Assembly (NCBI GenBank): GCA_905234145.1
Contig: CAJOGK010000002.1
Location: forward strand, 1 to 60,095
Origin: an uncultured Prevotella sp.
Lineage (GTDB): Bacteria > Bacteroidota > Bacteroidia > Bacteroidales > Bacteroidaceae
Direction of reading: 5' to 3'
Length of the DNA: 60,095 nucleotides
In this document: positions 1,872 through 34,172 of the stretch, piece after piece
Numbering within the stretch: the first letter of the stretch is position 1
Layout: each line of letters begins with the position of its first letter
Position numbers and translations under genes: made by a program
Notes under the pieces: generated by a model
What the model was told of the DNA's origin: nothing
Databases searched by the model: none
The model's input: the letters and a program-made list of their open reading frames with translations, nothing else

Positions 1872-2726
1872 ATGAAAAAAGAAAAAGGGTTTTACATACA
1901 ACAATATCATAATAAGTGGAGAATTGGAGAATATTCATTCCTGAATGATGATAATAGTACTGTTCATTTTAGAGGATGGGAAGTTGGAAAAAATTGCATT
2001 CAAGCTTCGTGTTTTGAAACAAGTGACACTTACTTTGTAAATGCCATTAAAAAGAATCCTTTATTTCCTATTTCTATTGAATTATGGGAAAGGGTGAAAT
2101 CAATAATAACTAATCTTGTTCACGACATAAAAGATGCAGTTCAGATTCAGCCCTCCCATCCATTTGACATCAAATATGGGCAATGCTATTATTGCCTTAC
2201 TGAATGCAATTTAGACATTGGTCGCTTTAGATTACCATATGAACAACATATGCCACTCGTTGATAGTGCTTACATTTTGGATTTAAGGGAAGAAGATTGG
2301 TTTTTAAGTATTTTACAAGATAAAATGGGGCTTCCTGATTATGAAAATCTAATCCAATTAAATAATTGTATATATGATGATTGTATTAAACGAATAGAAA
2401 ACACAATTTCATTGTTATTGCATTCTATTACAACTTCTATTCCGAAAAGCAAAGAAAATATGGTGAAAGAAGATCTTTCGCTGCAAGATTATCTCAATTC
2501 CAAAGTTACAAAAGAGGAGTTAAAAAATGCATGGATGGATGAATTTAGAGTTAAATATAGTGCCGATAGAAAACGATTATTGGAAAATACGAATTGGCTT
2601 GAAGATTATAACATACAAGAAGGTACAAAAGTTATCTGTGACGATGCCTTTAGAAGGTGTGATGAATTGATTTCAATAAACATTCCAAATAGCGTAGTCA
2701 CACAAAACTTTTTATTATGCAATTGA
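1872..2726 (+). pseudogene. BspA-like LRR protein, 5' half (interrupted by prophage)
   Basis: Residues 1-250 are a non-repeat N-terminal region without a signal peptide. From about residue 252 (EGTKVICDDAFRRCDEL) a BspA/LRR_5-type repeat begins, then breaks off at INIPNSVV. The prophage junction is inside codon 276 (2697-2699); the last eight codons plus TAA are phage DNA. Joining base 2698 to base 34173 continues the frame as SVVTIGDNAFMICRKL, a normal repeat, giving 612 codons. The AT-rich composition differs from the core genes further right. In the lysogen this would make at most a 284-residue truncated product. Confidence 0.85.
2693..2724. other. attL: attL (left prophage junction)
   Basis: Host BspA sequence meets phage DNA at the core cgtagt (2693-2698), also present at the right end (34167-34172). 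The phage-side arm ATTATGCAATT is at 2714-2724 and is the exact inverse of the arm at 34145-34155. The dyad centre falls on GT (2697-2698), which is the likely crossover dinucleotide. Confidence 0.85.
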
Positions 2727-2792
2727 AATTAAACTCCTTTAACAGTTTATCGGGAAAGATGCCCGATTTTGTAATCTGGGAATTTACAAAAA

Positions 2793-2831
2793 TGAGCATA
2801 TACACATAAGATGTACGTGCGTATATGCTCA
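2793..2831 (-). terminator. Terminator-like hairpin at the left prophage end
   Basis: TGAGCATATAC (2793-2803) pairs perfectly with GTATATGCTCA (2821-2831) around a 17-nt loop, just beyond the stop of the last minus-strand phage gene. Confidence 0.6.
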
Positions 2832-2840
2832 CTGCTTACT

Positions 2841-3134
2841 TTATCCTATTGTTGGCTCTGTGTTGCCAAACAAAACTTCATTCTCAATGCTCCACGAAAG
2901 CAATATTGTAAATTCTGGCTCAACACCACCTGTTACATAACTGCCTTTGACTTCAATTAACTGTATGTCATCATCAGTTTCGTCAATCTCATACGGTGCC
3001 GCTTGAATGTATTTGACTTCAATACTTTTCAAGTCTGTTTTGACTTCTTTAGTGAGATACTTCAATAGCACTTCATTAACTGCCGCGCTGCATTGTACTG
3101 ACAATTCCCGAACGCTTAAATTTTCCAATTTCAT
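2841..3134 (-). CDS. Phage hypothetical protein (97 aa)
   Basis: I do not recognise a family. It starts MKLENLSVRELSVQC, is acidic in the middle (DETDDD), and ends TAA with no in-frame TAG. It is the last gene of the left minus-strand block and the one nearest the left attachment site. A recombination directionality factor is conceivable from position alone. Confidence 0.6.
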   Translation of the reverse strand: MKLENLSVRELSVQCSAAVNEVLLKYLTKEVKTDLKSIEVKYIQAAPYEIDETDDDIQLIEVKGSYVTGGVEPEFTILLSWSIENEVLFGNTEPTIG

Positions 3135-3229
3135 AATATTCGTTTTTTATAAGTTTATAATGTGAGCCGCAAACGTCACCGAGGTCATTATAAATCGAAC
3201 ACACCCATACCAACATTTTACGGCTCTGT

Positions 3230-3637
3230 TTATTCTTTCAGTTTTTCGATTTCTTGACGTAAACGCTCTATCTCTTTTTGTGCTTCTGTAACAAACTCCG
3301 CATCTGCTTTTTGCTGTTCGTTTAACTCTGCCATTTTCTTTTCAAACTCACTGTCATCAGTGATTAGATTCTGATAGTTTCTGATGTGATACTTTTTTCG
3401 TTGCTCGAATTTCTCCAGACGCTTGCTTGCTGCATCAAACAACTGCTGCACTTCTTTCAGTTCTTTTTCTTTGTCTTCTAATTGACGTTTGACATTGTAG
3501 CCTTTGACTTTCTCATATTGAGTGATAAAGTCTTCTATGTGTGACAAAAAAACGTCTTCTTTCATACCAGCGTTTCTTGCTCTCTCAAAGAGTTCACGAA
3601 AACGATTATACAAATATATTTCCTCTCTGAATATCAT
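3230..3637 (-). CDS. Phage coiled-coil hypothetical protein (135 aa)
   Basis: The start MIFREEIYLYNRF at 3637 overlaps the upstream gene's TGA as ATGA, which favours it over a GTG 12 bp upstream. Most of the protein from residue 50 on is a predicted coiled coil rich in Glu, Lys and Gln (heptads in KELKEVQQLFDAASKRLEKF). No TAG. Function unknown. Confidence 0.65.
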   Translation of the reverse strand: MIFREEIYLYNRFRELFERARNAGMKEDVFLSHIEDFITQYEKVKGYNVKRQLEDKEKELKEVQQLFDAASKRLEKFEQRKKYHIRNYQNLITDDSEFEKKMAELNEQQKADAEFVTEAQKEIERLRQEIEKLKE

Positions 3638-4116
3638 AAGTGTACGCACTGAAACTTAGTCTTAATGATTTCTACTTCTCCAGACGGCCCGTTTACTTCT
3701 ACACTATAGTCAAAATACATTGTATCGCCAGTATCGAAAACTAACGTCCACTTTCGTAAGTCTATCGCTTGCGCTTCCCACGAATCTTTTTGCTTGTCAG
3801 TATGAGTTTCAAATAATATGATTTCGTCTTCTTTGAAATTCGTTAGCAATTTTAAGAATAGACCATTGTCACCGCCAAGATGTGCGGGACCGTGTGCTTG
3901 AATTGTATCGGCTAAACAGTCATACTCTATTTGTCTGCATCGTTTGCCGTCTGCTGTTGTGCCGTATGTGATTTGTGGATTGCCGTTTGCTTTGCGGAAA
4001 TCATCAAAGTGACAGACTTCTTTCGGTGCTGTCTGGGTGCTGTCATCATCAGACTTTGAGCAACCGACAATGACTGCTGCAATAATGACTGCTGACAGAT
4101 ATACTAACTTTCTCAT
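3634..4116 (-). CDS. Phage-encoded lipoprotein (160 aa)
   Basis: MRKLVYLSAVIIAAVIVGCS is a type II signal peptide with lipobox Cys at about residue 19, followed by a SKSDDDS acidic stretch like Bacteroidetes surface-export signals. The mature part is unrecognised. The start at 4116 is chosen over an in-frame start 17 codons upstream because the signal peptide begins there and a -7 box sits 20 bp ahead. Its own promoter suggests expression in the lysogen, for example as a superinfection or conversion factor; that is inference. Confidence 0.7.
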   Translation of the reverse strand: MRKLVYLSAVIIAAVIVGCSKSDDDSTQTAPKEVCHFDDFRKANGNPQITYGTTADGKRCRQIEYDCLADTIQAHGPAHLGGDNGLFLKLLTNFKEDEIILFETHTDKQKDSWEAQAIDLRKWTLVFDTGDTMYFDYSVEVNGPSGEVEIIKTKFQCVHL

Positions 4117-4136
4117 ACTTGTTTGCTTTTGTGCTG

Positions 4137-4144
4137 CAAAGATA
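4137..4144 (-). promoter_or_regulatory. -7 box for the lipoprotein gene
   Basis: TATCTTTG on the minus strand, 20 bp upstream of the lipoprotein start. Confidence 0.6.
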
Positions 4145-4198
4145 CGAAAAAGTTTTGGAAAGAACACAGATAAATACTAAAAATCAAATTCAGACAAA

Positions 4199-4357
4199 AT
4201 GAAAAATGCAATTATCTTAATTCTGATTTTCTTGGCGTTCGTAAAGTTCCCAACGATTGCACTTGCTGTTGTTGGTACGCTCGCCGCAACTGTACTGCTT
4301 GCAATGCTTGGCGTTGTAAATTTAAAAATCAATTATAAGACTGATGACAATGTATAA
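4199..4357 (+). CDS. Small membrane protein (52 aa)
   Basis: Starts MKNAIILILIFLAFVKFPTI and continues with a second hydrophobic stretch, so it is nearly all membrane helix, ending in a short polar tail and TAA at 4355. It overlaps the following zinc-ribbon gene by a few codons. It lies divergent from the lipoprotein gene. Function unknown. Confidence 0.5.
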   Translation: MKNAIILILIFLAFVKFPTIALAVVGTLAATVLLAMLGVVNLKINYKTDDNV

Positions 4358-4568
4358 TTTTAACTGCTGCCCGATGTGCGGGTACAATGAGCCTTTAATA
4401 TGGCTGAACACTGACCAACTGTTTGACGATGGTGACAGTGACGATGACGCTTTAGTACATCACTATCGCTGCCCGCGCTGCGGGTGTGACATTGACGTTA
4501 CAGAGCCAGTGAAAGAAGACAAAGAAACGACTTTCAGAGAGTGTTGGGAGTCAGAAAAGAGTGTTTGA
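4344..4568 (+). CDS. Zinc-ribbon protein (74 aa)
   Basis: Two CxxC knuckles (CPMC near residue 9 and CPRC near residue 44) form a rubredoxin-like zinc ribbon with an acidic linker. The start may be 4344 or 4350. The last 18 bases overlap convergently with the methyltransferase gene on the other strand. Short restriction-alleviation-type zinc ribbons in phages look like this, but I cannot assign it firmly. Confidence 0.6.
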   Translation: MTMYNFNCCPMCGYNEPLIWLNTDQLFDDGDSDDDALVHHYRCPRCGCDIDVTEPVKEDKETTFRECWESEKSV

Positions 4569-5657
4569 CGTAACTGATTTTGTTTGCTGTTTCTGAATCA
4601 CTACATAATAAGTTTTTATGTTAGTGCCAGATTCAGAAAAAGCACCCTAATCAATTTCGTGGACTTCACCACAAACAGACTGCAAGAAATCTCTAAACTG
4701 CTGAGATTTCTTGTCTTGGCTGTGCTACCAATGCGGTGACATTATAGCAACTAATCTGCCACCATCAGACAAATGCTCATACATTCGTAATACGTGCGTA
4801 ATGTCTTGGTTTTTGCTGAACGGTGGATTTGCTATAATATAATCATACTTGACAGACAAGTCACTCTGTAAGAAATCATCACCTATAATATTGACGTGCT
4901 ACATCTTTTGCAGCACTTTTTTGTTTTCCTGCATTGCTTCGTATACATCAAACTTGACATTATCATTGATATGCTGTACTGCTTTTATCAGTGCTCCTTG
5001 TCCTGCTGATGGTTCCAATATCTTAGCATTGTCTTTGATACGTCCTAAGTGTTGTGCAACTTCATCTGCAACTGCTTTAGGTGTTGCAAAAAACTGAAAG
5101 TCTTTCTTTTCTTGCAGATAGTCTTTGCCACTGAGTAACTGTCTGAGCACATCGTTTGCATCTGTTGTATCTGAAAAGACAAAGCCTTGTGTCTTTCCGC
5201 TTTTCCACTTCCCGCCGACTGCTTCCAACTGCTTCTTAACTTCATCATAAATCTGTCTGTCAAGTTGCTCTGTCGGTAGATGTAAGACGTTATCATTGAC
5301 AGTGCATTTCTTCCAGACTGATTCAATGTCTTTCAGAGTCGCTTTTGGCTGTCCCTGCCTCTTTGATTTTTGCTTGTCTTTATAGTCTTCGTCTGTCATA
5401 CCCATAGAACGTGTATAGGCTTCTATTTGACTGTTGAAATACTCTGAACGGCGTGTTTCGTGTTTGATAAGTTCGACTATTCTGTCAATACCCTCTAAGT
5501 GCTCGACTGACTCAATGTTATAGTATATGTCTGTGAGTGAAACACCGCTGACGGCTTTGAGTTCCAAAGCAGACATAATTGAATGTAGTACACTGTCACT
5601 GTCGGAAACGTCCGATGCTCTGACAGTTAAATCGATGCTGATTTTATAGTCTTTCAT
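4551..5657 (-). CDS. Adenine-specific DNA methyltransferase with 3 in-frame TAGs (368 aa)
   Basis: The AdoMet motif ILEPSAGQGAL lies near residues 213-223. The catalytic motif NPPF (277-280) lies after the first TAG (4899-4901, codon 253). Two more TAGs follow at 4725-4727 (codon 311, after MSPHW) and 4647-4649 (codon 337, before GAFSESGTNIKT). That last segment is the usual C-terminal signature of this N6-adenine methyltransferase family. Standard-code translation would stop before the active site. Stop is TGA at 4551-4553. Likely protects phage DNA from restriction. Confidence 0.85.
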
Positions 5658-8695: not shown

Positions 8696-11002
8696 TTACT
8701 GTGTGTCGTGGAGTGCTCGCCAATGTCTGCCACCCGCATAAGCACCAATGTAGATGTAAGTGTCATTACTCATTGATATATCTGCATTCAACTGGCAAAA
8801 GTAGTTATCATTCAAGTTGCTGTCAACTATAATAACGCCGTGCTCTGTATTGCTATATGGCACTACATAGACATTGCCGCCACTGTCATTGATGATAGTC
8901 ACTGTATATCCTACGGGCAGTCCTACAGTGTCACCGTCTGAGTCAGTGAAAGTCTCTGGCGGTAGAACAATCCAACTGTCTTGATAGTTGGATTCAGAGT
9001 CCATTGCACGCCCGATTACGTAACAAATGCCGCTGTCTCTCTGGGCATCGATTCTAAACGCCCATTTACTTGCATTTATATTGCCTATAAACTGATAAGT
9101 ATATAGATAAGGAGTCGTACCCGTTCCGACTTGAAACAGTGGTGTATAATTGTAAAAGGGAAACCAGACGGGCTTTACGTTTGGTGTCGTTCCTTTTATC
9201 TATGCTGCAACTTGAAAGTTCTGATTTTTAAATCCGTCTGGATTGTTCCAACGTATGCCGCTGAAACCATATCTCAACTGCAATTCGTCTTCGCTCGCCC
9301 ATATCAGTTTGTTTGCTCCCTAATGGGTGTAGAAACCATCACGCCCGATAAACGTCTGTGCGTTCTTTGCTGTCTGGCATCTGACATTTACTCTCAGATA
9401 TGCAGTGCCGCTTGCTGACTGACTGCTATAGACTCTTATCTTTAGTTTGTACGTTCCTGCACTCGGCGCCGAGTATCTGATGCGGTCTGACAGATTGCGA
9501 TAATTGCCGTAAGAGTCTGCTTTAGTTATTGTGACTTCATAATTCTTTGTCGAATCGTCAGGCAGTGTGATAATCGCTTTTAATGTCATTGTGTAAAATG
9601 TCGGGAAAGTGTTGCTCCCGCCACTGCTTGTATAGAACTGAGCGGAAAATTTATCTAAGTCAATAGTGTCGTACTGTGATAACGAAAAAGTTGTTTCGTT
9701 CGTTGTTAAGTCAAAGACTGTGACTGTGCCGCTTTTTGACAGATTCAGATACTAAAATGTATCATCTGCAATCGTGGTAATGTCTCCGACTGCATCACTC
9801 TATATATTGACTCGCGGCGTGTTCGTATTGTCATAGACAGTAAAGCCACTATTATTTGAGTCATAAAGATTCAGATTGCCATTGATGACAGTATTTGCGG
9901 CTGTCAGAGTGATTTTCTGATTGACAATGTCAATACCAGTAGGACCGAGACTGCTGTTAATACGTGCAATGATTGCGTCTTCGTCCACGCTCATTTGAGT
10001 GATTAAGTCTTCTACAGTGGTGCCGCTTGTGACTTTCAGATTACCGCGTATATTGTTGCCGTTTGCTGCAAACCACGTATATTTGTGGTTACTTAGATTA
10101 AAGTCATTGATTCCGACATACTGAGCGATTGACGGTGCTTTGATAGCCAGATCTGGTGACTTGTAAGCACTCAGAATGATTGCACTTTGTCTTTCATTGT
10201 CATCAGTTCCACGATAACCCAATTGCATAATTTCGTCACCGACTTCTGGAATACTTGTACCATCTTTCACAGTGTCAGATACGATGATATAATTGCAGTC
10301 TTTCGTCTCTCCGTCTATCGTTGTGCTGCCATCACCAACAGCCGTAACCAAACGCCAATAATATTTGTTGTTGACGTTGTGACTAATACCCGTCTGAGCG
10401 TTAAACGATTGACAGATTACTTGGTCATTGACTGCGAAATCATTGCTGATTGCTTTTTCTCTCTCATTGTCTTCTTTACGCCACCAGAGTTTGTAACCAC
10501 CGCTGACACTTTCGACTTTATCAACAATGCAATTCGCCACGCTTAATACTATAGTACCCCCGCAACTTTTCAGTTTATCAACTATCAACTCAAAAAAGTG
10601 TGCTGACCCAGTGACAGTGAGATTGTGAGTGTTTATGTTCTGACTGTCTAAGTTGTCAATACTTGCATCTATAGCAAATAAGTTTTTCCACTTCTTTGCT
10701 GCACTTCCAAGACTATACAAGTTGTTTTGTCTTGGCTCAATCGTCTCAGTACAGACATAATGTAAAGAACTGTCACCACCGACATTTAACGAGCCGTCAG
10801 CATAGACGCTGCCAACATCGTACAAGTCACCTTTGATGTCTTCTGTATCATCAAAGTATTGCCCCCAGATATTGACTGGGGCAAAACTGCCGCCCGTTGT
10901 GGTTGCAGAATTTGAGTTGCTGACTATTGTAGTATTTGCGCCGCTCTCTCTTAAAAATCTGTTTCTAAAGATGTGCGGAATAGTATTTGTTTCTATCTGC
11001 AT
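8696..11002 (-). CDS. Tail fibre / receptor-binding-like protein with 4 in-frame TAGs (768 aa)
   Basis: In the standard code this is three separate frames (9800-11002, 9320-9589, 8696-9004). All lie in one frame and are separated only by TAGs at 9800, 9752, 9320 and 9200 (codons 401, 417, 561, 601). The N-terminal part has fibre-like repeats (DASIDNLDSQNINTHNLTVT, and the phrase NLYSLGSAAKKWKNLF common in Bacteroidetes phage fibres). The C-terminal part is beta-rich with aromatic/Gly segments. Stop TAA. It lies downstream of the tail-tip gene, as expected for an adhesion device. Confidence 0.8.
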
Positions 11003-11011: not shown

Positions 11012-13522
11012 TTATATTTCGTTTGCTGAGAAAGTCACAGTGTTCTGACTCACATTGTACGTTGCAGTAGTCAGCACCATATTTCTTGCAGTGCCGCCCA
11101 ACGTTTCTGAAATCGGCTCGAATGGTGAAACACTACTGTTTTTGACTGTACGACCAAACTTGTACTTTGGGAGTCTGTAATAATTGACAAGTCGCTCCAC
11201 AAGTCTTTCTTCTGGCTTCTTACGCTGTGCTCCGAAAGTCAGAGCGTCAATATAGTAAAAATCATTGCTGCTGCTGTCTTTGCCGATTGCGTATGAATAG
11301 GATGTGGCCCACGTATTAGCAGAGTTCACTTTTAAAGTCACGTCTTCTAACTCAGTACAGTAGTCATCACTTACGACATTGCTGTATATCGTATCTGGGT
11401 CTGTCGTATTCTGATTGAATATGTCTGTACTTGAATTTGTCTTTGAATACTTGATTGACAAGTCTGAAATGTGTACTGCTTTGACTGTTGTGTCTGCTAA
11501 GTCGTTTCGTGGTTGCGGGTCCCTGCCGAGCAATTCCCCCCGATGAGTTGTCTGCGGTGCATACAGTTGAAATTGTAGTGAGCCGTAGAGCGTTCTGTCT
11601 TCTGGACATTTAACCGCCATACCATCAGAACTGTCAACGATGTTAAATCTGTAACTAACTGTATTAGTCAGGTCGTAATCTACATCGTAAATCGTTTCAG
11701 TAGTTTTATTGATGTGAACTAAAAAGAATCTGTCTTGCAGAATGATTTCGTAATAGTAATCAATACACATTGCAACGTGGTCACCATTGCCATTGACGTA
11801 GTAGAAATGATTGTTTCGTTTCGTCTTTCCTTTTTCTTTAGTGCCACTGTTAGCATTGTACTGCGATTCTGTCACATAAAGCCAATCACCGTAACTGTTT
11901 TTTATTCTGTACCAATTTTCCCAATCTCCTACTTTGTGTGTAGTTCCTGGCCCGCCTTGCAAAGCATAGCCGTGTATATTATCACTGCTCGTTGTGTAGT
12001 AACCGCGAGCGACTTTTGCATTATATACATCGTAACTTATCCATTCATCACCATTATAGTAGTCATTTCCGATTTTCAGTCTGCACGGCCAGAGCGTATT
12101 GTCTGGCCAATTGTCGTAACCAATATAGTCTGAGTCTGATGTCCAAGTCAGATTTGTACAACTTCCATAAGTCGCTGCAATATCGTACATTGACTTTACA
12201 ACTGAGTGAGCACGTAAATCAGTGCTCAATTTATAACGCATATTTAAAATCAAATAGCCACCATCAAGAATCATCGTCTTTGGCTTGTATAGAAACAGAT
12301 ACGGACTTGCACCCAGAAAACCACCGCCAGTCATAGTAACATACATTTTCCAATTAAGACTGCTTGGCTCTCCGTCTTCAAGTTTGTAACTGTCAACTCT
12401 CTGCCAGAAAACGCCGCTCTTTATAGTGTCACGGTTATAGACAGTCACTTCATCAATGTCATATTGGCCCGATGTGTCAAATGGATTGTTTTCAGTGCTT
12501 GGATGCAGATAAATCCAATTGCCTAATGACTTGAAAAATGCCGAGATAAGTTTGTAATCAATGCTGTCAAACGTATAGTCTTCTGTGTAGTACATATTTG
12601 GGTCGGTGTTCTGATTTACTAAGTCATCAGCATCTTCAAAATCTGGCAGGACTTCCGACAATGGATTATTCTGACTTATCACAGTTACTTTATTATATAC
12701 GCCATCGAGTGAAACGACTGCATCAGCATCAGACAAGCCAATCTGATTTGGTGTCCGTACTGTATAACTCAGAGACGTGTTTGTCTGTCGTACCCAACTG
12801 TCACTGCTATACGTATAGTGAGCGACATTATAAGTGCTATGCAGTTTGTCAGCACTGATGATATAATATGCAGACTTGTATTGTATCATCGTAAGTCCGA
12901 GATACAACAGCATAGCACTGACTACTTCACTTAATTTCTCTGGCTCTTCTTTTTCATCGAAGAAATTACGCTCTTTGATATACAGATTGTCTAAGATTGC
13001 ATCAGCACTGTCAAGGCTGATGCTGTTATCTACATACATATCTGTAATTACGTGCTCTGGGTCGGCTGCATCAATACAGTGAGAAAGAACGTCCATAAAT
13101 GAAAAGATTCCAACTGCATCTGCTTTATTGATGTACGTATAATCTATTTTGTCAAGTTGTGCAAGCGTATCGATACACTCTAAAGTAAGAGTGTCCCATT
13201 TCTAAACGTAACTTTGAGAGTATATATTCGGTGTTGCATAGCCAGCCCAAAACAAAGTGCTGTTTCTGTAGATTTTGACAAGTGTGTCGAAACGTCCACC
13301 GCTAAAAATGTTCGTGAGTAAATCTTCGGTAAAGATATTGATTGACGCTCCAGACGTTCTAAGCGGCTGAAAGATGCTGTCTGCACTATACTCAATAGAC
13401 ATTGCATCAGATAGCAATTTCACTTCTGATGCAGTGCCGTTTGTCTGCGTGTAAATTTCAAGTCTGAGACTGTTATTGTCTCGGTCTTTGAAATCGCTAT
13501 AATATCTCAAATAATAACTCAT
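11012..13522 (-). CDS. Tail tip / baseplate-like protein with 1 in-frame TAG (836 aa)
   Basis: Start MSYYLRYYSDFKDRDNNSLR at 13522. One TAG at 13202-13204 (codon 107) separates the N-terminal domain (SIEYSADSIFQPLRTSGASI) from the remaining 729 residues. The size and its position between tape measure and fibre fit a tail-tip protein. The segment after the TAG, KWDTLTLECIDTLAQLDKID, reads naturally as a continuation. Stop TAA at 11012. Confidence 0.75.
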
Positions 13523-22046: not shown

Positions 22047-22060
22047 TTTGTGTATTTATC
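22047..22060 (-). promoter_or_regulatory. Phage start motif variant GATAAATACACAAA (portal)
   Basis: One mismatch from the consensus, 18 nt before the start at 22028. Confidence 0.65.
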
Positions 22061-23732
22061 ACTGAGCCACAACGTCAGAAATCAATTGTGATACGTCAAA
22101 GCCTTGCACGCGGCTCAAATATGCGCCAAGTGCTTCTAATATGCTGATTACTGCATCAATCTTTTGTGCTTTCTGTGCTTTGTCTGGCTTGCAGTTCTCA
22201 TTGTGGTCTATCTTAATGCGGACGTTTGAAAAGCACCATCTTACTAACTCAGATACATCAATAATGACTTTACCACTAAGCAACAATCTTTCAAACTCTT
22301 TTGTTGGACGATTGAAATTACCGAGTGACTGACTGAACGGCTACATAGGCAATCCCTAAGACGTTGCATTTATAGCAAACTGCGTGGCGTTCCAACTATC
22401 ATAAGCAACACTTACTATATATGTGCTTTCATTCAGACTGAGCAAGTCGTTTAATATAATGTCATAGTCCACTACATTGTCAGGAGTCAATTTCAGTTCA
22501 CCGCTGCTTATAAACTTTCTGTATAGAGCACTATTAGGACTTTTCCCGATTGTGTCTTCTGGCAAATAAGCAATCGACTTGAAAACATATTTGTCCGGCC
22601 AAATTTCACGCTCTGCATCTGGTGGAAATAAGACGGTCCAACAAGTCAAGTCACTGACTGCGGCCAGATCAACACCGACAAAGCACTCACTATTCTTAAA
22701 GAGTTCTATATTAACTTTCTGCATTGACTTGACAATCTGATTGTCTGTTATCCACGTTTCAATTAGTGACTACTGCCAAACACCAAAGTTTTTACTGATA
22801 ACGTCTGTTGCATCTATTAGGCTTGATTCTGCCTAAAGAACTTGGTCCCGTAAATAGTCAATGCTGCAACTAATATGCAAATTCGGATTTGATTTCTGCC
22901 AGACTGTTTCTGAGTGCCAATCATCACCATCATCAAGCGTGTATATAAATGCTACAGTAGTATCATTTGTTTTTCTGCCTTGAATAACGTCTATTGCACT
23001 TTGACGAATCTGATAATAAGGACAAAGCGGATTCTTTCCCGCACTTGTAATAATGAATGACAGTGGGTTTTTCCTTGCTGCCTAAGACGTTGCTAACACT
23101 GCGAACAAATCCATTGTCTTTGCTTCGTGTGCTTCATCTTGGAAAAATACGAAACTATTGAAACCGTCCAATCTGGACGCATCAGAACTAAGTGCTTCAC
23201 AGAAACTTTTCGTCTTATCGTATTTCAGTTTTTTCAGTGTTGGTTTTAGATACTTCTGTTTTGGGTCCATACGACTTGCAATGTTTTTAACCATCTGAAA
23301 AAGTATGTCTGACTGTCTGGCGCTATTAGCAACGATTTGCACCTATGCTGCTTGCTCTCCGTCTGCAATCAGAGCGTAAAGCGAAAGTGCTGCTGCAAAC
23401 ATTGACTTTCCGTTTTTTCGTCCTACTTCAAGTATTGCGTGTCGGATGACACGTCTGTCAGTTCCAGAGTAGTAAAAGCCATAAACATAATAGACTATGA
23501 ATTTTTGAAATGGACTTAATATAAACGGGTTGCCCGCCCACTGACCTTCATATAGTTCTAACTTCTACACGAAATTAACAACACGGTCTGCTTTGTCTGC
23601 ACGAAACTCTATGTCTTTACGTTGCAACCATTTCAAATAACGACTGCACACGTCTTTGATGTACTGACAAGCAATGATTTTGCCAGAGAGTACGTCATCA
23701 GCATATTCGGTGTATTTTGGTGCAATCGTCAT
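22059..23732 (-). CDS. terL: Terminase large subunit with 7 in-frame TAGs (557 aa)
   Basis: ATPase Walker A GRKNGKS (104-110), Walker B FFQDEAH (D199, E200), and nuclease segment FVGVDLAAVSD (D355). TAGs lie at 23565, 23343, 23082, 22833, 22770, 22356 and 22341, as codons 56, 130, 217, 300, 321, 459 and 464. The two last ones flank GLPM, just before PFSQSLGNFNRPTKEFERLL, a conserved C-terminal signature. In the standard code it would be seven or eight pieces, none with both Walker motifs in a functional whole. All interruptions are TAG and the frame is otherwise intact. Stop TGA. Confidence 0.95.
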
Positions 23733-23740: not shown

Positions 23741-24091
23741 TTAGTCACTTAGAAATTTTTCAGCGAAATCGTCATTGTCTGTTGCTTGATTTCCGCGTAT
23801 CATAGACTTTGCTCGCGGTGACAAACCAAACTCCGCAATAACTTTTTTCATTGCGTTGGTACAGTCCAACATAATTGTAAAGTACGGCGATTTACAAATC
23901 GTCTTACTGTTGTTAATTGTAGTCGTAATCTCTGAATCTTTCTGAGCGTCCGACGCTCTGAGATAACAACTGTATAAGTCCTCTAACTGTTGCAGTTGTG
24001 CCGACCATTCATCGGGTACGCTGCCGTAGTCTTCTTTGATGCGGCGTTTGACTGCGTTAATGTACTTTGTAACTCTTTTATCGTCTGTCAT
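23741..24091 (-). CDS. terS: Terminase small subunit, P27-like (116 aa)
   Basis: Sits 8 bp upstream of terL. It has TKYINAVKRRIKEDYGSVPD at the start and LYSCYLRASDAQKDSEITTT in the middle, with FGLSPRAKSMI near the end, the usual P27-type ending. No TAG; stop TAA. It binds the packaging site and loads TerL. Confidence 0.8.
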   Translation of the reverse strand: MTDDKRVTKYINAVKRRIKEDYGSVPDEWSAQLQQLEDLYSCYLRASDAQKDSEITTTINNSKTICKSPYFTIMLDCTNAMKKVIAEFGLSPRAKSMIRGNQATDNDDFAEKFLSD

Positions 24092-24162
24092 ATCAATATA
24101 TCTGTTAGTTTTGAACCACTCCTAAAAAAGTCCGCGTAAATCTTCAAGGGAATTTGGCGCGA

Positions 24163-24193
24163 GATGCCGTCTCACTTGGCTCTGAGTGGCATC
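24163..24193. other. Strong hairpin beside terS
   Basis: GATGCC (24163-24168) pairs with GGCATC (24188-24193), and inner CTCA with TGAG, next to a run of seven G's. Either a terminator or part of a packaging (cos/pac) site. It lacks the conserved arms and T-loop of a tRNA. Confidence 0.4.
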
Positions 24194-24206
24194 TGGGGGG
24201 GATTGT

Positions 24207-25121
24207 TTAAGTTTCGTTGACACTGTTTTCATCGTTTTCAAATCTCCAAATAAAACCGTATGCGGTCTGCTGCTTACCATTGCAACAGAAAGAAATGTGA
24301 GTCGTATTTTTCCCGACTGATTTTCCCGCTTCTGTCATACTGTCAAACACTTCAATCAGATTTCCGTCTAAGTCGTACTTACAGACTTTCTTTTTATCGT
24401 GTAACTTATTTGTGTTATACGGTGTCACTACACTATTATCATCTGCATATCTGAAAATTGAATCTTTGTACTTTGGTAATTTGTAGTTACAGACTGCTTT
24501 GATTTTCTTTCGTGGTGTTTGTGTTGCTTCGACTGCATCATCAATGTCATCATACTCTGCAATGAGATTGCCGTTTAAGTCGTACTGCTTGACTGCAATT
24601 TTTTCTTTCTCTTTAACTGTCTCACCGCTTTTAATGCGTGCAACTTCGTTACTGAATATCGCACCACCGACAAGTAGATTGTCACTGCTTAAACTGTGAT
24701 TCACTATAACTGTCTGCTGCTTGTCACTGATTAACTGTCTTTGTGAGTCAGTAAGAGTGAGAGAGTCGCTTTTGTAGTCAGTGAAATGTGAATCGTTCAA
24801 AGACAGCATATTATCAAAATCAATACTGATTTCTATGAGCTTGTCAATAGTGTCTGACTTTGGTATTACAGCATTAACAACGTGCTCTGCATCACTCAAA
24901 AGATTGTTACACAAATCAAGTTCGTCAAATGGGTGCTCTGTCAAATAGACTGATTTCATAAATCCGACAATATTCTTGGCAAAATTAATCTGATTATGAG
25001 TGCTGCTTTCTTGCTTCTTATAAGTACCACGCTGAATGCCCACAAACATCTTAATGCTGTGAATCTGCGAGTTATCCAACGCCAAGCCGTTGACTGTGAT
25101 AGATGCTTCTGAGTAGTACAT
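24207..25121 (-). CDS. NUMOD1-domain protein (304 aa)
   Basis: Two NUMOD1-type modules lie in the C-terminal half: VKQYDLNGNLIAEYDDIDDA around residues 178-235, and CKYDLDGNLIEVFDSMTEAG with TAYGFIWRF around 250-297. NUMOD1 modules are DNA-binding parts of homing endonucleases. The N-terminal 170 residues show no HNH or GIY-YIG motif I can see. The start motif lies 15 nt before the ATG. No TAG; stop TAA. Confidence 0.65.
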   Translation of the reverse strand: MYYSEASITVNGLALDNSQIHSIKMFVGIQRGTYKKQESSTHNQINFAKNIVGFMKSVYLTEHPFDELDLCNNLLSDAEHVVNAVIPKSDTIDKLIEISIDFDNMLSLNDSHFTDYKSDSLTLTDSQRQLISDKQQTVIVNHSLSSDNLLVGGAIFSNEVARIKSGETVKEKEKIAVKQYDLNGNLIAEYDDIDDAVEATQTPRKKIKAVCNYKLPKYKDSIFRYADDNSVVTPYNTNKLHDKKKVCKYDLDGNLIEVFDSMTEAGKSVGKNTTHISFCCNGKQQTAYGFIWRFENDENSVNET

Positions 25122-25136: not shown

Positions 25137-25150
25137 TTTCTGTATTTATC
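25137..25150 (-). promoter_or_regulatory. Phage start motif GATAAATACAGAAA (NUMOD1 gene)
   Basis: Exact 14-mer on the minus strand, 15 nt before the start at 25121. It overlaps the TGA of the upstream HNH gene. Confidence 0.7.
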
Positions 25151-25574
25151 AAAACGCATAATGATATTTACGTCTGACTGCTTCTATACGCTTTTTCAAG
25201 TGCTCTTTTTCTTCGTCTGAAAGTGCTGATGTGTTGCCGTGAATGTAGCCGTGATTTCGTTTCGTCAGTGCAATCAGATTGTCAGCATCTAACAAAAGTG
25301 CAAGTGTCTGTGTCTCGCTGTAGCCAGAATTAAACGGACTGATTAAATGGTGTATGTCCTGCGCTGCTTCTACTCTGTCATTTAACAAAGATAGTTCGTC
25401 CAATGGGTGCAAACGTCTGTACTCGCTTCGTAACGCTTTCCATTGTGGTAACTGATAGTAAGACGCTCTTACGTCTGATGTGCTTATATACGTCTTTATT
25501 TCGTTGACAGACTGTTTCTATTGATGCAGCCGTCTTTGTCTATTCACATCTGCTAAAGTCACTATCTTAGGCAT
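25149..25574 (-). CDS. HNH endonuclease with 1 in-frame TAG (141 aa)
   Basis: Start MPKIVTLADVNRQRRLHQ at 25574, then TAG (25518-25520, codon 19), then KQSVNEIKTYISTSDVR. The HNH core follows: RVEAAQDIHHLISPFNSG and DADNLIALTKRNHGYIHG (H-H...N...H). Small HNH proteins next to terminase genes assist DNA packaging in many siphophages, and this one is near terS. Stop TGA. Confidence 0.78.
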
Positions 25575-25578: not shown

Positions 25579-26181
25579 TCAAAAGAGTTTCGTTAGTTTC
25601 CCGTCAATGGTGACAAACATACTGTCTGCAACAGCATCAGCAATCGACATTCTGACTTTTTCTCTCACTTCATCTGATTGAGCGTGTAAGCGGTCGTAAT
25701 AGAAACCACTGCACTTGTATTTCTTAGAATGTCCGCCAGACAATATACGACTGAGTGTTGGGCTTGGTATATTTGTGTGTTTTCTCGACTGATAGAACTA
25801 TACAGAGTCATCATCATAAACGAGATAGAGCATTCTGTCTTTCTCCCTGCCGCGATAACGTCTATGCTTGCAGTTGTCTCTATGTGACAGCCAGCGTAAG
25901 TTTGTCACATCGTTGTTTGTGGTGTTGTGGTCTATGTGGTCACATTCAGCACCGTCAAAGTAACTGTCAAACTTGAATGCGAGCAACACTAAAAACCCAC
26001 GCTGCACGCAATGATAGCGGCCATCGTCACCAATCAGAGTATTATAAATGTAACCAGACTGACCAACTCTGTCGCTAATACGATTGAGTTTGATTGCCTC
26101 GTCTGTGATAGTGATACGGTAAAGACTGCCAAAGTCATCTACCATATAACGGCTAAAATTAGTAATAGTTTGTAACGTCAT
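25579..26181 (-). CDS. HNH homing-endonuclease-like protein with 1 in-frame TAG (200 aa)
   Basis: HNH motif AECDHIDHNTTNNDVTNLRW at about residues 79-98, then LSHRDNCKHRR. TAG at 25798-25800 (codon 128) is followed by a tail with PSPTLSRILSGGHSKKYKCS, which looks like a DNA-binding segment. Start motif 21 nt upstream of the ATG. Stop TGA at 25579, four bases before the next start. Confidence 0.75.
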
Positions 26182-26309: not shown

Positions 26310-27413
26310 TTATTTATCTGTGATATTCGGCACCGAAAACATATTTGAACTAACACTGCTAAGAGCCTGAGTCAAATTGGTAAACTGTTCATCAAGTTTA
26401 CTTCCGATAACTTGATTGTGAAAGTTCATACGAGCGTCTATCTGTGCCATGAGATTATCGACTTTGATACGCTCTATCTCTCTCAATGTTTCAGTCTGAT
26501 TGTCTATCTGTTCACTTACGTCATTAATACGCGCAATCACTTCTGATGACCGTATTTCGATTTCGTCCGCAATCTCATCGACTGCATCGTCAATGTGGTC
26601 GTGGAGTTCTTTGACTTCTTTGTAATCAGTTCGGGTGTACTTCTGTTCTGACAAACCAAACTCAGACATATACTTTCTTGCAGTCCTCTCACCACAACGC
26701 CACCACTTCATAACTGCTTCTTTCTTTTCAGTCTGAGTCATACCATCTTCAAAACAAGAAATTAAGTCATCAGCACACGTCGGACGCTTTTTGAATGACT
26801 GTCGTGTTCGCTTGTCGGGAGTGTAACCAAAACCGTACTACACTGCAATTTGTTCATAATACGAAATGTCTAAGTCGTAGATTCTTTGTACTGTCTGCCA
26901 CAAGTCTTTGACGTTGACAATCCATTTGTCACCGTCAAACGCTTTAATATAGTAAAACATTGTATGTAAGCAAGTGAAAATGATATGCTCTTTAGTTAGA
27001 CTGCTAACATCGTATTTTGAAAATGTCATCGAAAGTATCACGTCATTAAATTCAACGTAACCCTAATAGTCGTAATTACGAAAGTGAGTCTTTCCGATAA
27101 CAAATGTTGTATGATAGCGACTTTGAATTATATCGTCAATCGTTACACTTTTTGCTGATGTAAGATGAAAGCGAGTTGCCTTGTTAAATCCGTTATGAAT
27201 GATAACAGGGTAATCATCGACAAGCGACTTGTCAATTTCATCAATTTTAGAGTCTTTGTCCTTTGTTCTGCCCCACCAATTGTAATATACATCTGATGGC
27301 TTTTTCGCTTCGTCTAAGACATCATCAATGAATGAGGCAATCTCTTTACAGTTCGTTTCAGATGCCAGTTTGCTTTTTCCTAAAGGATTCGATAATAATT
27401 TTAAAATTTTCAT
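26310..27413 (-). CDS. Phage hypothetical protein with 2 in-frame TAGs (367 aa)
   Basis: Three standard-code pieces (27063-27413, 26838-27041, 26310-26741) share one frame and are split only by TAGs at 27063 and 26838 (codons 117 and 192). N-terminal MKILKLLSNPLGKSKL, a middle WQTVQRIYDLDISYYEQ, and a C-terminal coiled coil (EIADEIEIRSSEVIARINDV). The piece KKEAVMKWWRCGERTARKYM resembles a small HTH or packaging-type helix pair. Family not recognised. Stop TAA. Confidence 0.65.
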
Positions 27414-28512: not shown

Positions 28513-28550
28513 CGCAGTCTGTAAGTCGAAATCTTGACTCTCCAGACACA

Positions 28551-28565
28551 AATAAATACTGAAAC
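28551..28565 (+). promoter_or_regulatory. Phage start motif variant AATAAATACTGAAAC (28585 gene)
   Basis: Two differences from consensus, 19 nt before the start at 28585 and divergent from the copy at 28499. Confidence 0.6.
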
Positions 28566-28584
28566 ATATACCACTTTAGAACAA

Positions 28585-28923
28585 ATGAAAAACGTAATTC
28601 GAGGACTTGACGATTTAGTCTATCGCTTGCAGATAGAACGTGCTGACGGTACTGAGTTTCTTTTGTCTGATTTCGCTGCTTTCGACATTGCTGTCTTTAC
28701 TGATGACTGTGCAACTTGTTATATCATCGAAAGTGAGTACATCGATTCCGAAGAAAATCTGATAAGAGTGCCCGCAAATAAAATTGAAAATCTACTGAAT
28801 GACGGTATCATTAGACTGCAACTGTTGACTGCAACTGATGACTTAAACTTTCCAGACGGTGACTACAATTAGACAAACATTGTTGACACTTGCTATTACT
28901 TAAAAACAATCAAGGACAAATAA
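28585..28923 (+). CDS. Phage hypothetical protein with 1 in-frame TAG (112 aa)
   Basis: Start MKNVIRGLDDLVYRLQIERA fits the motif 19 nt upstream; an earlier in-frame ATG at 28534 overlaps the divergent gene. TAG at 28870-28872 (codon 96) is followed by TNIVDTCYYLKTIKDK and TAA, three bases before the fibre gene. The DGDYN-TAG-TNIVDTCYYL reading looks continuous. Small beta-rich proteins ahead of fibre genes occur in Bacteroidetes phages; function unknown. Confidence 0.65.
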
Positions 28924-31214: not shown

Positions 31215-32390
31215 ATGCCAAACAACAATTCTTTTTCAATTACACGTAAATTCTGGAGTCCAAGCGTTACGTCTCAGTTTTGCGTCTGCCCGATTCCTTT
31301 TCACTTCGACACATATCGTGGCTGTTCTTACGGCTGTCTGTTCTGCTTTGCCCGTGACTTCATTGAGTTCACCAGACGCAATCAGGACGAAAGCAAGCGT
31401 AAGCAATCATACTTAGAGGGCAATGACTCGAAAGGACTGCAAAGGTGGATTGATAAAGTATTAGCGTCTGACAGTTACGACTACACGAAAGCAGAGACAG
31501 TTGCATTTAAAGAACGCATACCCGTAAAGATTGGTGCAACTGCCGACCCGTTCCCGATAATCGAAAAAACAGAGCGTATCACATACGACTGTCTGAAAGT
31601 GTTTCAAAAGTACGATTATCCCGTACAGATAAGCACTAAAAACCCCGAAATCTTTCTGTCATACGCTTCTGATTTCATAGGTGCCAACATTGCTTTGAAT
31701 GTTTCTTGCTCATTCATTGACGATGACATTGCACGTTAGATTGAATGTGCTGCAATCAGTCCGACCAGACGTTTTGCTGCAATCAAGAAACTATCTAAAA
31801 TGGGCTTTAAAATCACTGCACGTTTGCAGCCGTTTATATTGCCATACAGTGAGCAAGTTGCAGAAAGATTTGTGAAGACTTTAGCAGACTGCGGAGTCTG
31901 GGCGTTTTAGACAGAGGGCTTAAAGATACGTGTGTGTATGTCAGACAAAGAAAAAGCCGTTTACAGTCGTATTGGTGACGTTCTTGGCTTTCACATTATT
32001 GACTATTTTAAACGCTTTGGAATGATTGAGTTTGGCGATTATGTCTATAACTCGACTGACAAACGCCGTATGCTGAAACTGTACTCTGATTTAGCGCAAA
32101 AATATAATATCAAGTTTTTCAATGCAGATAACTTTCTTGATGATGGAAAGTACGGCTGCGGCTGTGAGTGCTGCGGTACATCGTTTCTGCGGAATCATAA
32201 AATCTGGGGCGGTTGCAGACGCGCAACAGTTTACAGTGAAAGTGCTGTTTAGTCATCTACTGAGTTCGGCAAATGTTTAGTCAATTTCACACGTAGTAAA
32301 GCCAGTGAAAATAAGACTATCGCCGAAGTGACAAAAGCGTATAACAGGAAAGACGCTATACCATACCCGATTATCACTCCGCTTTTCTGA
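31215..32390 (+). CDS. Radical SAM protein with 3 in-frame TAGs (391 aa)
   Basis: The CxxxCxxC cluster motif RGCSYGCLFCF is near residue 37-47, and PVKIGATADPF is typical of the spore-photoproduct-lyase-like (COG1533-type) branch. TAGs at 31737, 31908 and 32250 (codons 175, 232, 346). The middle piece TEGLKIRVCM after VWAF is recognisably part of the same barrel. A Cys-rich C-terminal part (YGCGCECCGTSFLRNHKIWG) may bind a second cluster or zinc. Stop TGA at 32388. The role in the phage is unknown. Confidence 0.8.
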
Positions 32391-32451
32391 TGATAAATAA
32401 AGTGTCTCAGACAAGTGCTTTCTTGCTCGCTTGTCTTCTATTATATATAAA

Positions 32452-32480
32452 ATAGGTGCAACCGTTCTGGCTGCACCTAT
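32452..32480. terminator. Terminator for the integrase and radical SAM genes
   Basis: ATAGGTGCA (32452-32460) pairs perfectly with TGCACCTAT (32472-32480). It lies 25 bp past the integrase TAG stop. Confidence 0.75.
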
Positions 32481-32504
32481 CACTTTTCTCACTTGCTCTG
32501 CTTG

Positions 32505-34085
32505 CTATGCTTTAAACTCTCTGTTGTAGCCTTCTACGTTTGTGACATCAATACCGTATTCGATGTTTGTACCCATATACAATTTAGTGCCGCAGCCGTG
32601 TCCGAAACTAAAGAAAGTTTCACTGAGTTCACTGTTTTTCTTTCGAATAGTCCAATACTTAACACCGTCTTTAACTTCAACGTCAACACGCTCGACAAGT
32701 GCATGGACTATTTCATATATTTCAGAGTGTGTCATATCTTTCACACTGACCATAGTGTTTAAATAGTCAAGTTGCTTAACACCGATTTTCTCTCTGCTGC
32801 TTTCAAGTTCGCGTCTGCGTGTTTCGAGTGCTTCTTTCTTGTCTAACAGTTCTTTTTCATCTGCTTTCGCTGCACTCATTTTCTTGTCTCTCGTCTGGCG
32901 GTCAAATTCACCCTCTTCATAGTTTTCAAGTATTCTATCTACTTTGCCGCTGATTTTCTCCAACTGCTTTTCGATTGCCATTATCTTAAATGGAATTTCT
33001 TTCAGTTCTTTTTCGATTTTGTCACGGCGTGCGCTGTCATCTTCTACAACGTCTTTCGCGTACCATACACTTACAGTTTGAACTAAAGTTGCATCCATCC
33101 AACGTGCATTGATGTGCGCTGCATTGTCGCAATACAATGCTTTGCCATCGATTGAAATACCACTCTGCAAGTATTCTGCTTTGTGTCCGCTGCAAACGTA
33201 GTTACGACCAACTAATCTGTAGTTTCTTCCGCAGTCTGGGCACTTAATCAGTCTTTCACCAAGTGACATTTTTCTTTCCTTGCCGCTTGATTTCGTGTTT
33301 GCCTTGCGTACTGCTTGCGCTTGCTCAAATTTCTCGTCACCGACAATTTTTCTGTACTGTTCATCTTCAATGAACTTACTGACACGGCTACGGGTGTAAG
33401 TCTTAGACTTTCTGCAAGCAATACCCATTTCGTTCATATAGTTTGCAATTGCTTCGTTGCCCTGCCCTTCAATGTACTTGTCAAAGATAGTATTGATGAT
33501 ATTAGTCTTTGCTTCGTCAACGATGATTTCTTTCTTGTCATTGAGCGTATAACCATACTTGACACTGCCACCCGTGAAACGTCCCTCCTGCTTTGCTCTA
33601 CGCTTACCGTTTGCAAAGCGTTCTTTTTTTATAATCATTTCTTGCTGTGCCATCACACCCATAATGTAGATAAGCAACTGTGCGGCCATCGAAAGACTGC
33701 CGTCACGCTCAAAAAGACGAATATTAGGAGTGTCACACACCAACTGAATTTTCTGCTCGGTCAACCACTGCACTACAGACGAAATAACGTCCATACGTCT
33801 GCCGAGACGTGAAATCTCAAAAACATAGACTGCGTTAATAGTCGGGTCGGCTGCAATTGCTTCTTTCAACTGATTAAGTCCCTCACGTTCTTTCTCGTTT
33901 CGCTTGATAGCAGACTCTTTGTTTGAAATCTCAATCAGATTTTCTTTCTTGTACCCGTCGGCAATTGCTACGGCGGTCATTCTGCGGACTTGTTCTGTAT
34001 AGTCCTGCGACTCCGTTGAAACACGAGCAAAGATGATGGCCTTGCTGTTGTTCTCGCTGCTGTTTTTGATGTTCTTTGTACTCAT
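32505..34085 (-). CDS. Large serine integrase, standard code (526 aa)
   Basis: Resolvase-type N-terminal domain with catalytic Ser23 in FARVSTESQ, then SRLGRRMDVIS. A recombinase domain follows, then a zinc ribbon (CPDCGRNYRLVGRNYVC) and a coiled coil (about 360-425). The frame contains no internal TAG, and its own stop is TAG (32505-32507), just before a terminator. If this TAG were read, about 76 residues would be added up to TAA at 32277, translated through the terminator hairpin. It catalyses phage integration at the BspA site. Confidence 0.93.
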   Translation of the reverse strand: MSTKNIKNSSENNSKAIIFARVSTESQDYTEQVRRMTAVAIADGYKKENLIEISNKESAIKRNEKEREGLNQLKEAIAADPTINAVYVFEISRLGRRMDVISSVVQWLTEQKIQLVCDTPNIRLFERDGSLSMAAQLLIYIMGVMAQQEMIIKKERFANGKRRAKQEGRFTGGSVKYGYTLNDKKEIIVDEAKTNIINTIFDKYIEGQGNEAIANYMNEMGIACRKSKTYTRSRVSKFIEDEQYRKIVGDEKFEQAQAVRKANTKSSGKERKMSLGERLIKCPDCGRNYRLVGRNYVCSGHKAEYLQSGISIDGKALYCDNAAHINARWMDATLVQTVSVWYAKDVVEDDSARRDKIEKELKEIPFKIMAIEKQLEKISGKVDRILENYEEGEFDRQTRDKKMSAAKADEKELLDKKEALETRRRELESSREKIGVKQLDYLNTMVSVKDMTHSEIYEIVHALVERVDVEVKDGVKYWTIRKKNSELSETFFSFGHGCGTKLYMGTNIEYGIDVTNVEGYNREFKA

Positions 34086-34134
34086 AACTCTTAATATTTA
34101 AACGGTTTAACTTAAATTTTATTGTTTCTGAGTG

Positions 34135-34142
34135 CAAAGATA
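34135..34142 (-). promoter_or_regulatory. -7 box for the integrase
   Basis: TATCTTTG on the minus strand, 49 bp before the integrase ATG and about 25 bp inside the right end, so its upstream part reaches into the attachment site. Confidence 0.6.
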
Positions 34143-34144
34143 CT

Positions 34145-34172
34145 AATTGCATAATTAAAATGTTTACGTAGT
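34145..34172. other. attR: attR (right prophage junction)
   Basis: Phage arm AATTGCATAAT at 34145-34155, core cgtagt at 34167-34172, then host BspA sequence resuming in frame at 34173. Confidence 0.85.

What the first reader, a model, noticed from the sequence alone, without database searches (positions are those of the whole stretch)
2699..34172. Prophage with TAG reassigned to a sense codon
Fourteen phage genes are broken in the standard code, and all 32 breaks found are TAG. No TAA, TGA or frameshift occurs inside them. Read through TAG, terL, portal, tape measure, connector, joining protein, gp10-like, fibre, methyltransferase and radical SAM regain family-typical lengths and motifs. TAA and TGA still act as stops. 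Amber recoding, often TAG to Gln, is known in Lak and some crAss-like phages of gut Bacteroidales; here it is an integrated, small siphovirus-like phage in a host that itself stops at TAG.
Basis: partly seen in the sequence, partly recalled or inferred. Interest (0 to 1): 0.95.

Follow-up and report, generated by a model that had tools for sequence, protein, structure and literature searches.

The report
Gut prophage reading TAG as glutamine

Summary
A 31.5-kb prophage lies between two CGTAGT cores (2693-2698, 34167-34172) inside a host leucine-rich-repeat gene. I count 34 in-frame TAGs in 16 phage genes (reader: 32 in 14), plus one at the integrase end. Against proteins of standard-coded relatives, all 16 internal coding-strand stops seen in at least 3 alignments are TAG. 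Sequence after the first TAG shows low dN/dS in 22 of 23 calculable comparisons, and relatives most often have Gln there. Six TerL relatives share the trait; the same TerL family holds another TAG clade, a TGA clade and many standard-coded phages.

Recoded prophages in standard-code hosts are already reported, and about half of published code-15 phages lack a recognised suppressor tRNA, so the kind is known. This case is a prophage with both ends in hand and no recognisable tRNA; 11 relatives' records (fragments) have none and 39 tRNA matches in the 85%-complete host assembly include no CTA anticodon. Three phages of the other TAG clade carry one and use TAG for 22-37% of Gln codons, against 4-9% here. 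TerL needs seven readthroughs, so weak leakiness should not suffice. The decoder is likely supplied in trans; untested.

The parts
2693..2698 (.). left attachment core CGTAGT
   Evidence: Direct reading; the host LRR frame runs into it from the left
34167..34172 (.). right attachment core CGTAGT
   Evidence: Direct reading; the LRR frame continues to its right
1872..2726 (+). ORF with the left piece of the interrupted host leucine-rich-repeat gene (host part to about 2698)
   Evidence: ends ...AFRRCDELISINIPNSVV and then runs into phage DNA; no Pfam hit on its own
34173..35184 (+). right piece of the interrupted host leucine-rich-repeat gene
   Evidence: LRR_5 E=1.2e-71 for 34195-35184; frame open from 34159
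22059..23732 (-). TerL, 557 aa, 7 in-frame TAG
   Evidence: phrog_9 E=5e-134; TerL_ATPase and TerL_nuclease
23741..24280 (-). TerS, 1 TAG
   Evidence: phrog_83 E=5e-9
20856..22028 (-). portal, 390 aa, 1 TAG
   Evidence: Phage_portal E=9e-65 over profile 1-321/321 when read through; first piece alone 1-175/321
19131..20852 (-). protease-major capsid fusion, 0 TAG
   Evidence: Peptidase_S78 and Phage_capsid; 0 TAG in 8 of 8 window-clade records
18685..19002 (-). head-tail adaptor Ad1, 1 TAG
   Evidence: phrog_40
18371..18688 (-). head closure Hc1, 2 TAG
   Evidence: phrog_25
17812..18378 (-). conserved tail/connector gene, 1 TAG
   Evidence: 81-95% identical in close relatives, 42% in L212
17412..17825 (-). 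tail terminator-like, 0 TAG
   Evidence: phrog_347 E=2.5e-4
16854..17339 (-). major tail protein, 0 TAG
   Evidence: phrog_1407
13537..16044 (-). tape measure, 835 aa, 4 TAG
   Evidence: phrog_339 E=7e-10
11012..13522 (-). tail module gene, 836 aa, 1 TAG
8696..11002 (-). tail tip/fibre-like gene (by place), 4 TAG
4551..5657 (-). methyltransferase, 368 aa, 3 TAG
   Evidence: N6_Mtase E=1e-6
3634..4332 (-). unknown gene, 1 TAG
25149..25574 (-). unknown conserved gene, 1 TAG
25579..26181 (-). HNH endonuclease, 1 TAG
   Evidence: HNH_3 E=4.5e-7
26310..27413 (-). unknown conserved gene, 2 TAG
28534..28923 (+). unknown conserved gene, 1 TAG
31215..32390 (+). radical SAM protein, 391 aa, 3 TAG
   Evidence: Radical_SAM E=1.1e-5, 26.1 bits against a cut-off of 29.5; rSAM_PA0069 E=2e-19, below cut-off
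32505..34085 (-). large serine integrase, 526 codons without TAG, ending at a TAG
   Evidence: phrog_95 E=1e-54; Resolvase, Recombinase

Best explanation
This is a complete amber-recoded temperate phage in which TAG encodes glutamine, integrated in a host that stops at TAG, and the tRNA activity that reads TAG is likely supplied from outside the prophage. Shown: both attachment cores; in-frame TAGs in 9 of 13 packaging, head and tail genes and no other supported internal stop; low dN/dS after the TAGs in 22 of 23 calculable comparisons; Gln as the commonest aligned residue in relatives; no tRNA gene recognised in the prophage. Inferred: in the lysogen the host's RF1 would end translation at the first TAG, so portal, TerL and tape measure would not be completed, while the integrase (526 codons, no TAG) would be. 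On induction a UAG-reading tRNA would be available and the late genes would become readable. TerL holds seven TAGs, so a per-site efficiency e gives e to the power 7 of full-length protein, and an efficient decoder is needed. I favour a decoder coded elsewhere in the cell (an unassembled host locus or a co-resident element); that step is untested.
For: Unbiased stop test: 16 of 16 internal coding-strand stops supported by at least 3 alignments are TAG. Amino acid: Gln ranks first over 22 TAG columns (mean BLOSUM score 1.31, Glu 1.28) by a method that names all 60 sense codons with at least 8 columns correctly. In six relatives' records a window TAG faces a Gln codon in 38 of 83 non-TAG comparisons (Glu 16), a relative's TAG faces a window Gln codon in 21 of 59 (next Thr 8), and 15 comparisons are TAG in both. 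dN/dS after the first TAG: TerL 0.11-0.14, portal 0.04-0.07, TerS 0.13-0.17, Ad1 0.06-0.10. TerL of L038, L039, L040, L152, L153 and L212 holds TAG and no other stop; window, L038, L039, L152, L153 and L212 form one clade (SH-aLRT 96-100). No decoder seen: ARAGORN 0 in the window; Rfam no tRNA up to E 5 and, for 24000-34300, E 10; model of three CTA phage tRNAs with filters off, best 11 bits against 49-57 for three tRNAs not used to build it. Host: no CTA anticodon among 39 tRNA matches. Contrast: CTA tRNA in L099, L174 and L177, whose records have a TAG share of Gln codons of 22, 23 and 37%, against 4.2-9.4% in 8 window-clade records.
Against: Over all relatives Gln beats Glu only narrowly, and 9 of 34 TAGs had no aligned relative residue. 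In the subset of closely similar genes a relative's TAG faces window Ala 5, Ser 3 and Gln 3 of 11 (window TAG faces Gln in 13 of 20). dN/dS was 0.43 for the tape measure against L039 and not calculable in 6 comparisons, and dS is often above 1. The relatives also show 10 TAA/TGA in 23,362 aligned codons. The host assembly is 85% complete; the relatives' records are fragments. High TAG share also occurs in held pieces where no suppressor was seen (L178 38%, L093 31%, L180 23%) and L212, in the window clade, has 16%; L062 has 4%, so share does not track a visible tRNA cleanly; lower share may mean younger recoding. MCP is TAG-poor also in the tRNA-bearing phages (1, 0, 1). TAG is not significantly uneven among genes (permutation p 0.14), so a late-gene switch is not shown; 0 TAG in the integrase has a chance of 20%. 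The CTA model missed the TCA tRNA that ARAGORN sees in L127, so its silence is not proof. No CTA tRNA lay among the 30 best matches in 299 genus genomes, which speaks against a common chromosomal suppressor.
Confidence: 0.5

Rival explanations
1. TAG is Gln, but the suppressor tRNA is encoded in the prophage in a form that the searches miss (intron-split or very divergent).
For: PMC7886860 (passages read) offers this for crAss-like phages without a detectable suppressor. About 8.5% of the prophage is non-coding, with one 685-base gap at 27414-28098 that is 73% identical to L264 over about 600 bases. The CTA model missed a real TCA tRNA in L127.
Against: ARAGORN, Rfam, a cloverleaf scan that scores three known CTA tRNAs 19-21, the prophage 15 and background up to 17.5, and a dedicated model with filters off find nothing; none of 11 relatives' records holds a tRNA.
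Confidence: 0.27
2. The phage neutralises RF1 and the host's own tRNA-Gln then reads UAG as a near-cognate codon, so no suppressor tRNA is needed.
For: It would explain both Gln and the missing tRNA. That RF1-deleted E. coli reads UAG partly as Gln is recalled, from no call. The phage methyltransferase 4551-5657 has weak, below-cut-off similarity to the release-factor methyltransferase PrmC.
Against: No gene was recognised as an RF1 antagonist; the same methyltransferase matches N6_Mtase better and an rRNA methyltransferase model more strongly than PrmC.
Confidence: 0.17
3. Ordinary leaky readthrough of UAG makes enough full-length protein.
For: TAG share of Gln codons is low and MCP is TAG-free in 8 of 8 window-clade records.
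Against: TerL has seven TAGs, so even 30% per site gives about 0.02% full-length protein; TAG is not enriched before C (16 of 127 TAG against 224 of 1136 CAG, Fisher p 0.056 in the opposite direction). That C favours readthrough is recalled.
Confidence: 0.04
4. A decaying prophage with nonsense mutations, or sequencing error.
For: Fragmentation under the standard code.
Against: The supported internal stops are TAG only; conserved frame and low dN/dS after TAG; the same pattern in independent records.
Confidence: 0.01

Closest known systems
Recoded prophages in standard-code bacteria (PMC10746230 passages read, citing its ref. 23, which I take to be Borges et al. 2022, not held and recalled; PMC12454387 passages read: 38 of 10,742 pig-gut prophages)
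   Same: Integrated phage with an alternative code in a host that uses the standard code
   Different: Here both attachment cores were found and the sequence between them has no recognisable suppressor tRNA; I could not check this in the published prophages
Code-15 phages at large (PMC11210395, two of three parts read)
   Same: TAG=Gln; 375 of 715 predicted code-15 phages encode a CTA suppressor, so 340 do not: lacking one is common
   Different: A prophage bounded on both sides, with a clade of relatives compared for tRNA and TAG use
Crassvirales and Lak phages (PMC7886860, PMC9523058 passages read; Lak from abstracts)
   Same: TAG=Gln or similar recoding, hosts in Bacteroidales, switches between TAG, TGA and standard code at short distance, suppressor presence not always matching recoding
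   Different: A 31-kb temperate siphovirus-type phage with HK97-type protease-capsid, tape measure and serine integrase
Second TAG clade and TGA clade of the same TerL family found here (L099, L174, L177; L045, L181 and others)
   Same: Related TerL, recoded genes
   Different: L099, L174 and L177 carry CTA tRNAs; TCA-anticodon tRNAs sit in the record of L181 and in L127

Membership tests
Code 15 (TAG=Gln) phage | Reading TAG as sense restores long genes; TAA and TGA reading does less | tested here: met
Code 15 (TAG=Gln) phage | TAG sites correspond to Gln in homologues | tested here: met
   narrow over all relatives, Gln commonest in the nearer ones (38 of 83, 21 of 59)
Code 15 (TAG=Gln) phage | Phage-encoded CUA suppressor tRNA (375 of 715 by PMC11210395: common, not required) | tested here: not met
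Code 15 (TAG=Gln) phage | Gln at TAG shown by mass spectrometry | not testable with these tools
   done for two crAss-like phages in PMC9523058, not here
Integrated temperate phage | Integrase, attachment repeats, interrupted host gene | tested here: met
   an empty site was not found, only the right flank being searched
HK97-type siphovirus | HK97-type capsid with protease, portal, TerL, tape measure, major tail protein | tested here: met
Crassvirales / Lak phage | Genome of about 90 kb or more (size recalled) | tested here: not met
   31.5 kb between attachment cores
Standard-code host | TAG used as stop and RF1 present | tested here: met
   3 of 19 host genes in the window end in TAG; release factor with PAT motif

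The most novel reading that the evidence does not exclude
A whole lineage of temperate phages uses UAG as glutamine without carrying any decoder, and relies on the host to switch its own genetic code (RF1 taken out and near-cognate tRNA-Gln, or a borrowed suppressor), so that the code itself acts as the lysogeny-lysis switch.
Probability: 0.25. Interest if true: 0.88.

Novelty: new member of a known kind. Interest (0 to 1): 0.56.

Why it matters
Recoded phages are usually explained by a phage-borne suppressor tRNA, yet PMC11210395 finds one in only 375 of 715 predicted code-15 phages. A prophage with both ends in hand, no recognisable tRNA and seven TAGs in TerL makes the open question testable: who reads UAG? 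The TerL family assembled here, with standard, TAG- and TGA-recoded members, some with and some apparently without a matching tRNA, is a natural series for studying how a code change starts and what it costs.

Tried and rejected
Chance and error were rejected. The P of 1e-26 is biased, because ORFs were delimited with TAG=Q, and is not used. Database proteins were not used to score TAG columns: one entry equals the window's own TerL with Gln at the TAGs, so such databases may already translate TAG as Gln. A late-gene-only pattern was tested and is not significant. Context after TAG is suggestive only (purine 76 of 127 against 552 of 1136 after CAG, p 0.019); relatives are not independent. DNA matches of the head-packaging block in phage records: none. 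Empty site: only the right flank was searched, in 150 genus genomes, with short LRR-like matches. Non-coding conservation: the gap at 16518-16853 may be an overlapping tail-chaperone frame, not tested. The TerL tree used 114 of the 185 rows: rows under 400 residues, 11 duplicates and rows under 330 bits were left out; quick method. The ARAGORN scan was given 26 recoded loci and found 7 tRNAs, 3 of them CTA and 1 TCA. Literature searches; Borges et al. 2022 is not held.
Full report
What was checked. The window is the first 60,095 bases of an 85.5-kb contig (C2) of a 3.11-Mb, 144-contig, 85% complete assembly. The host genus has more than 398 species in the held set. One TerL locus of the same genus (L232) duplicates a record of an uncultured Prevotellaceae bacterium (L098), and loci of the same family duplicate Phocaeicola paurosaccharolyticus and Prevotellaceae records; I infer a Prevotella-like Bacteroidales host.

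Boundaries. CGTAGT occurs at 2693-2698 and 34167-34172. Left of it the frame 1872-2726 ends in a leucine-rich-repeat motif; right of it the same kind of repeat continues into an LRR_5 gene. So the prophage, with a large serine integrase beside its right end, is inserted in a leucine-rich-repeat gene, and the sequence between the cores is the whole phage genome unless the assembly is wrong. An empty site was not found; only the right flank was searched, in 150 genus genomes.

The TAG codons. Sixteen phage genes hold 34 in-frame TAGs: TerL 7, tape measure 4, 8696-11002 4, methyltransferase 3, radical SAM 3, Hc1 2, 26310-27413 2, and one each in nine others. The integrase is open for 526 codons and then meets a TAG; a relative (L039) has a TAG at a similar place and another (L250) a Q-rich tail there without TAG, so that TAG may be a stop, a Gln, or both. 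The unbiased test used ORFs of relatives judged standard by their TerL: 16 of 16 internal coding-strand stops supported by at least 3 alignments are TAG, the only other supported coding-strand stop being the portal's own end; 18 TAA/TGA lie on the antisense strand, two of them in 4 alignments and the rest in 1; 8 further TAG with 1-2 alignments were not listed by strand.

Which amino acid. Scoring aligned residues by BLOSUM62 names all 60 sense codons with at least 8 columns correctly and puts Gln first for TAG (22 columns), narrowly before Glu. 25 of the 34 TAGs had any aligned residue. In six nearer records Gln codons face a window TAG in 38 of 83 cases (CAA 19, CAG 19; Glu 16) and a window Gln faces a relative's TAG in 21 of 59; 15 are TAG in both. 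Against this, in the most similar genes a relative's TAG faces Ala 5, Ser 3 and Gln 3 of 11, while a window TAG faces Gln in 13 of 20. At three radical SAM columns database relatives show Gln in 13, 26 and 3 of 39, but such databases may translate TAG as Gln and are given no weight. After the first TAG, dN/dS is 0.04-0.24 in 22 of 23 calculable comparisons with L244, L039 and L250; the exception is the tape measure against L039 (0.43), 6 comparisons were not calculable because dS was saturated, and many of the others have dS above 1.

Relatives. A scan of TerL in 184 loci plus the window finds 17 with TAG only (window included, two of them duplicate records), 10 with TGA only, 1 with a TAA and 157 with none. 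In a quick tree of 114 rows the window, L038, L039, L152, L153 and L212 form one TAG clade whose next neighbour L155 is standard; another TAG clade (L046, L048, L093, L174, L177, L178, with L160 near), a lone TAG phage (L180) and a TGA clade lie elsewhere with standard-coded phages between. Counted against the TGA rows only, at least two changes of the TAG label are forced by starred branches; whether gains or losses is not settled.

The decoder. No tRNA is found in the prophage by ARAGORN, Rfam, a cloverleaf scan or a covariance model built from three CTA phage tRNAs with filters off. Records of 11 relatives, from 4 to 43 kb and all classed linear, hold none (6 of the 16 records, 5 of the 10; the other five are distant). 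The CTA model finds nothing above 14.6 bits in the relatives searched, but it also missed the TCA tRNA of L127. In the host assembly 39 tRNA matches include no CTA anticodon; three (C77, C46, C35) are truncated or partly degenerate copies. In the other TAG clade L099, L174 and L177 carry CTA tRNAs; L178, L093, L160, L048/L100 and L180 show none in the pieces held. The 30 best matches to the CTA model in 299 genus genomes are all tRNA-Gln(UUG), which fits a Gln identity. TCA-anticodon tRNAs sit in the record of L181 and in L127; L127 is 83% identical to the TGA-recoded L045 TerL over a 284-codon piece but was too short for the tree.

How hard the code is used. TAG makes up 4.2-9.4% of Gln-type codons in 8 window-clade records, 16% in L212 and 22, 23 and 37% in the three CTA-tRNA phages. 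But L178 (38%), L093 (31%) and L180 (23%) are also high with no tRNA in the piece held, and L062 is low (4%), so the contrast is suggestive. The capsid gene has 0 TAG in 8 of 8 window-clade records and in L271 and L278, but it is TAG-poor in the tRNA-bearing phages too (1, 0, 1), which points to a general cost of UAG in an abundant protein. Within the window prophage TAG is not significantly uneven among genes (p 0.14).

Mechanism. The sequence shows that most late proteins cannot be completed in the host's normal code. It does not show when or how the code changes. TerL's seven TAGs make weak leakiness insufficient. I put a decoder supplied in trans first, a hidden phage tRNA second and RF1 removal with near-cognate tRNA-Gln third; these steps are inference.

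What is known. PMC10746230 (passages) states that some prophages use an alternative code inside standard-code bacteria; PMC12454387 (passages) reports 38 of 10,742 pig-gut prophages; PMC9523058 (passages) shows TAG=Gln by mass spectrometry in two crAss-like phages; PMC7886860 (passages) notes that suppressor presence and recoding do not match perfectly and suggests a host-encoded or divergent suppressor; PMC11210395 (two of three parts read) finds a CTA suppressor in 375 of 715 code-15 phages, so lacking one is common; PMC10879173 (abstract and one section read) links suppressor tRNAs to theta ribozymes. So this is a new member of a known kind, with its ends and its relatives worked out.

Noticed in passing
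L045, L088, L094, L166, L167, L168, L181, L221 (TerL): A TGA-recoded group of related phages (TerL with 4-6 in-frame TGA); a TCA-anticodon tRNA sits in the record of L181 and in L127, whose TerL piece has one TGA.
   Followed up: partly
window 27550-27612: Five copies of ATGTGGC in about 60 bases in the longest non-coding gap of the prophage, possibly a regulator binding array.
   Followed up: no
window 27780-28045: Three similar hairpins (GAGTGTAC...GCACACTC type) next to A-runs, which look like minus-strand terminators.
   Followed up: no
L036:270-334, L037:283-345, L034:266-339: Truncated or partly degenerate tRNA copies in the host assembly (two with a shortened anticodon arm, one tRNA-Asp copy with a foreign 3' end), perhaps scars of integrated elements.
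   Followed up: partly
window 4551-5657: The recoded phage methyltransferase has weak, below-cut-off similarity to the release-factor methyltransferase PrmC and to rRNA methyltransferase models besides N6_Mtase.
   Followed up: no
window 16062-16789: Two overlapping minus-strand frames between major tail protein and tape measure, the usual place of a tail-assembly chaperone made by frameshift (recalled); the upstream part is conserved in relatives.
   Followed up: no
window 35225-36238: Between two leucine-rich-repeat genes lies a host gene of 337 aa with no Pfam match that ends in TAG.
   Followed up: no
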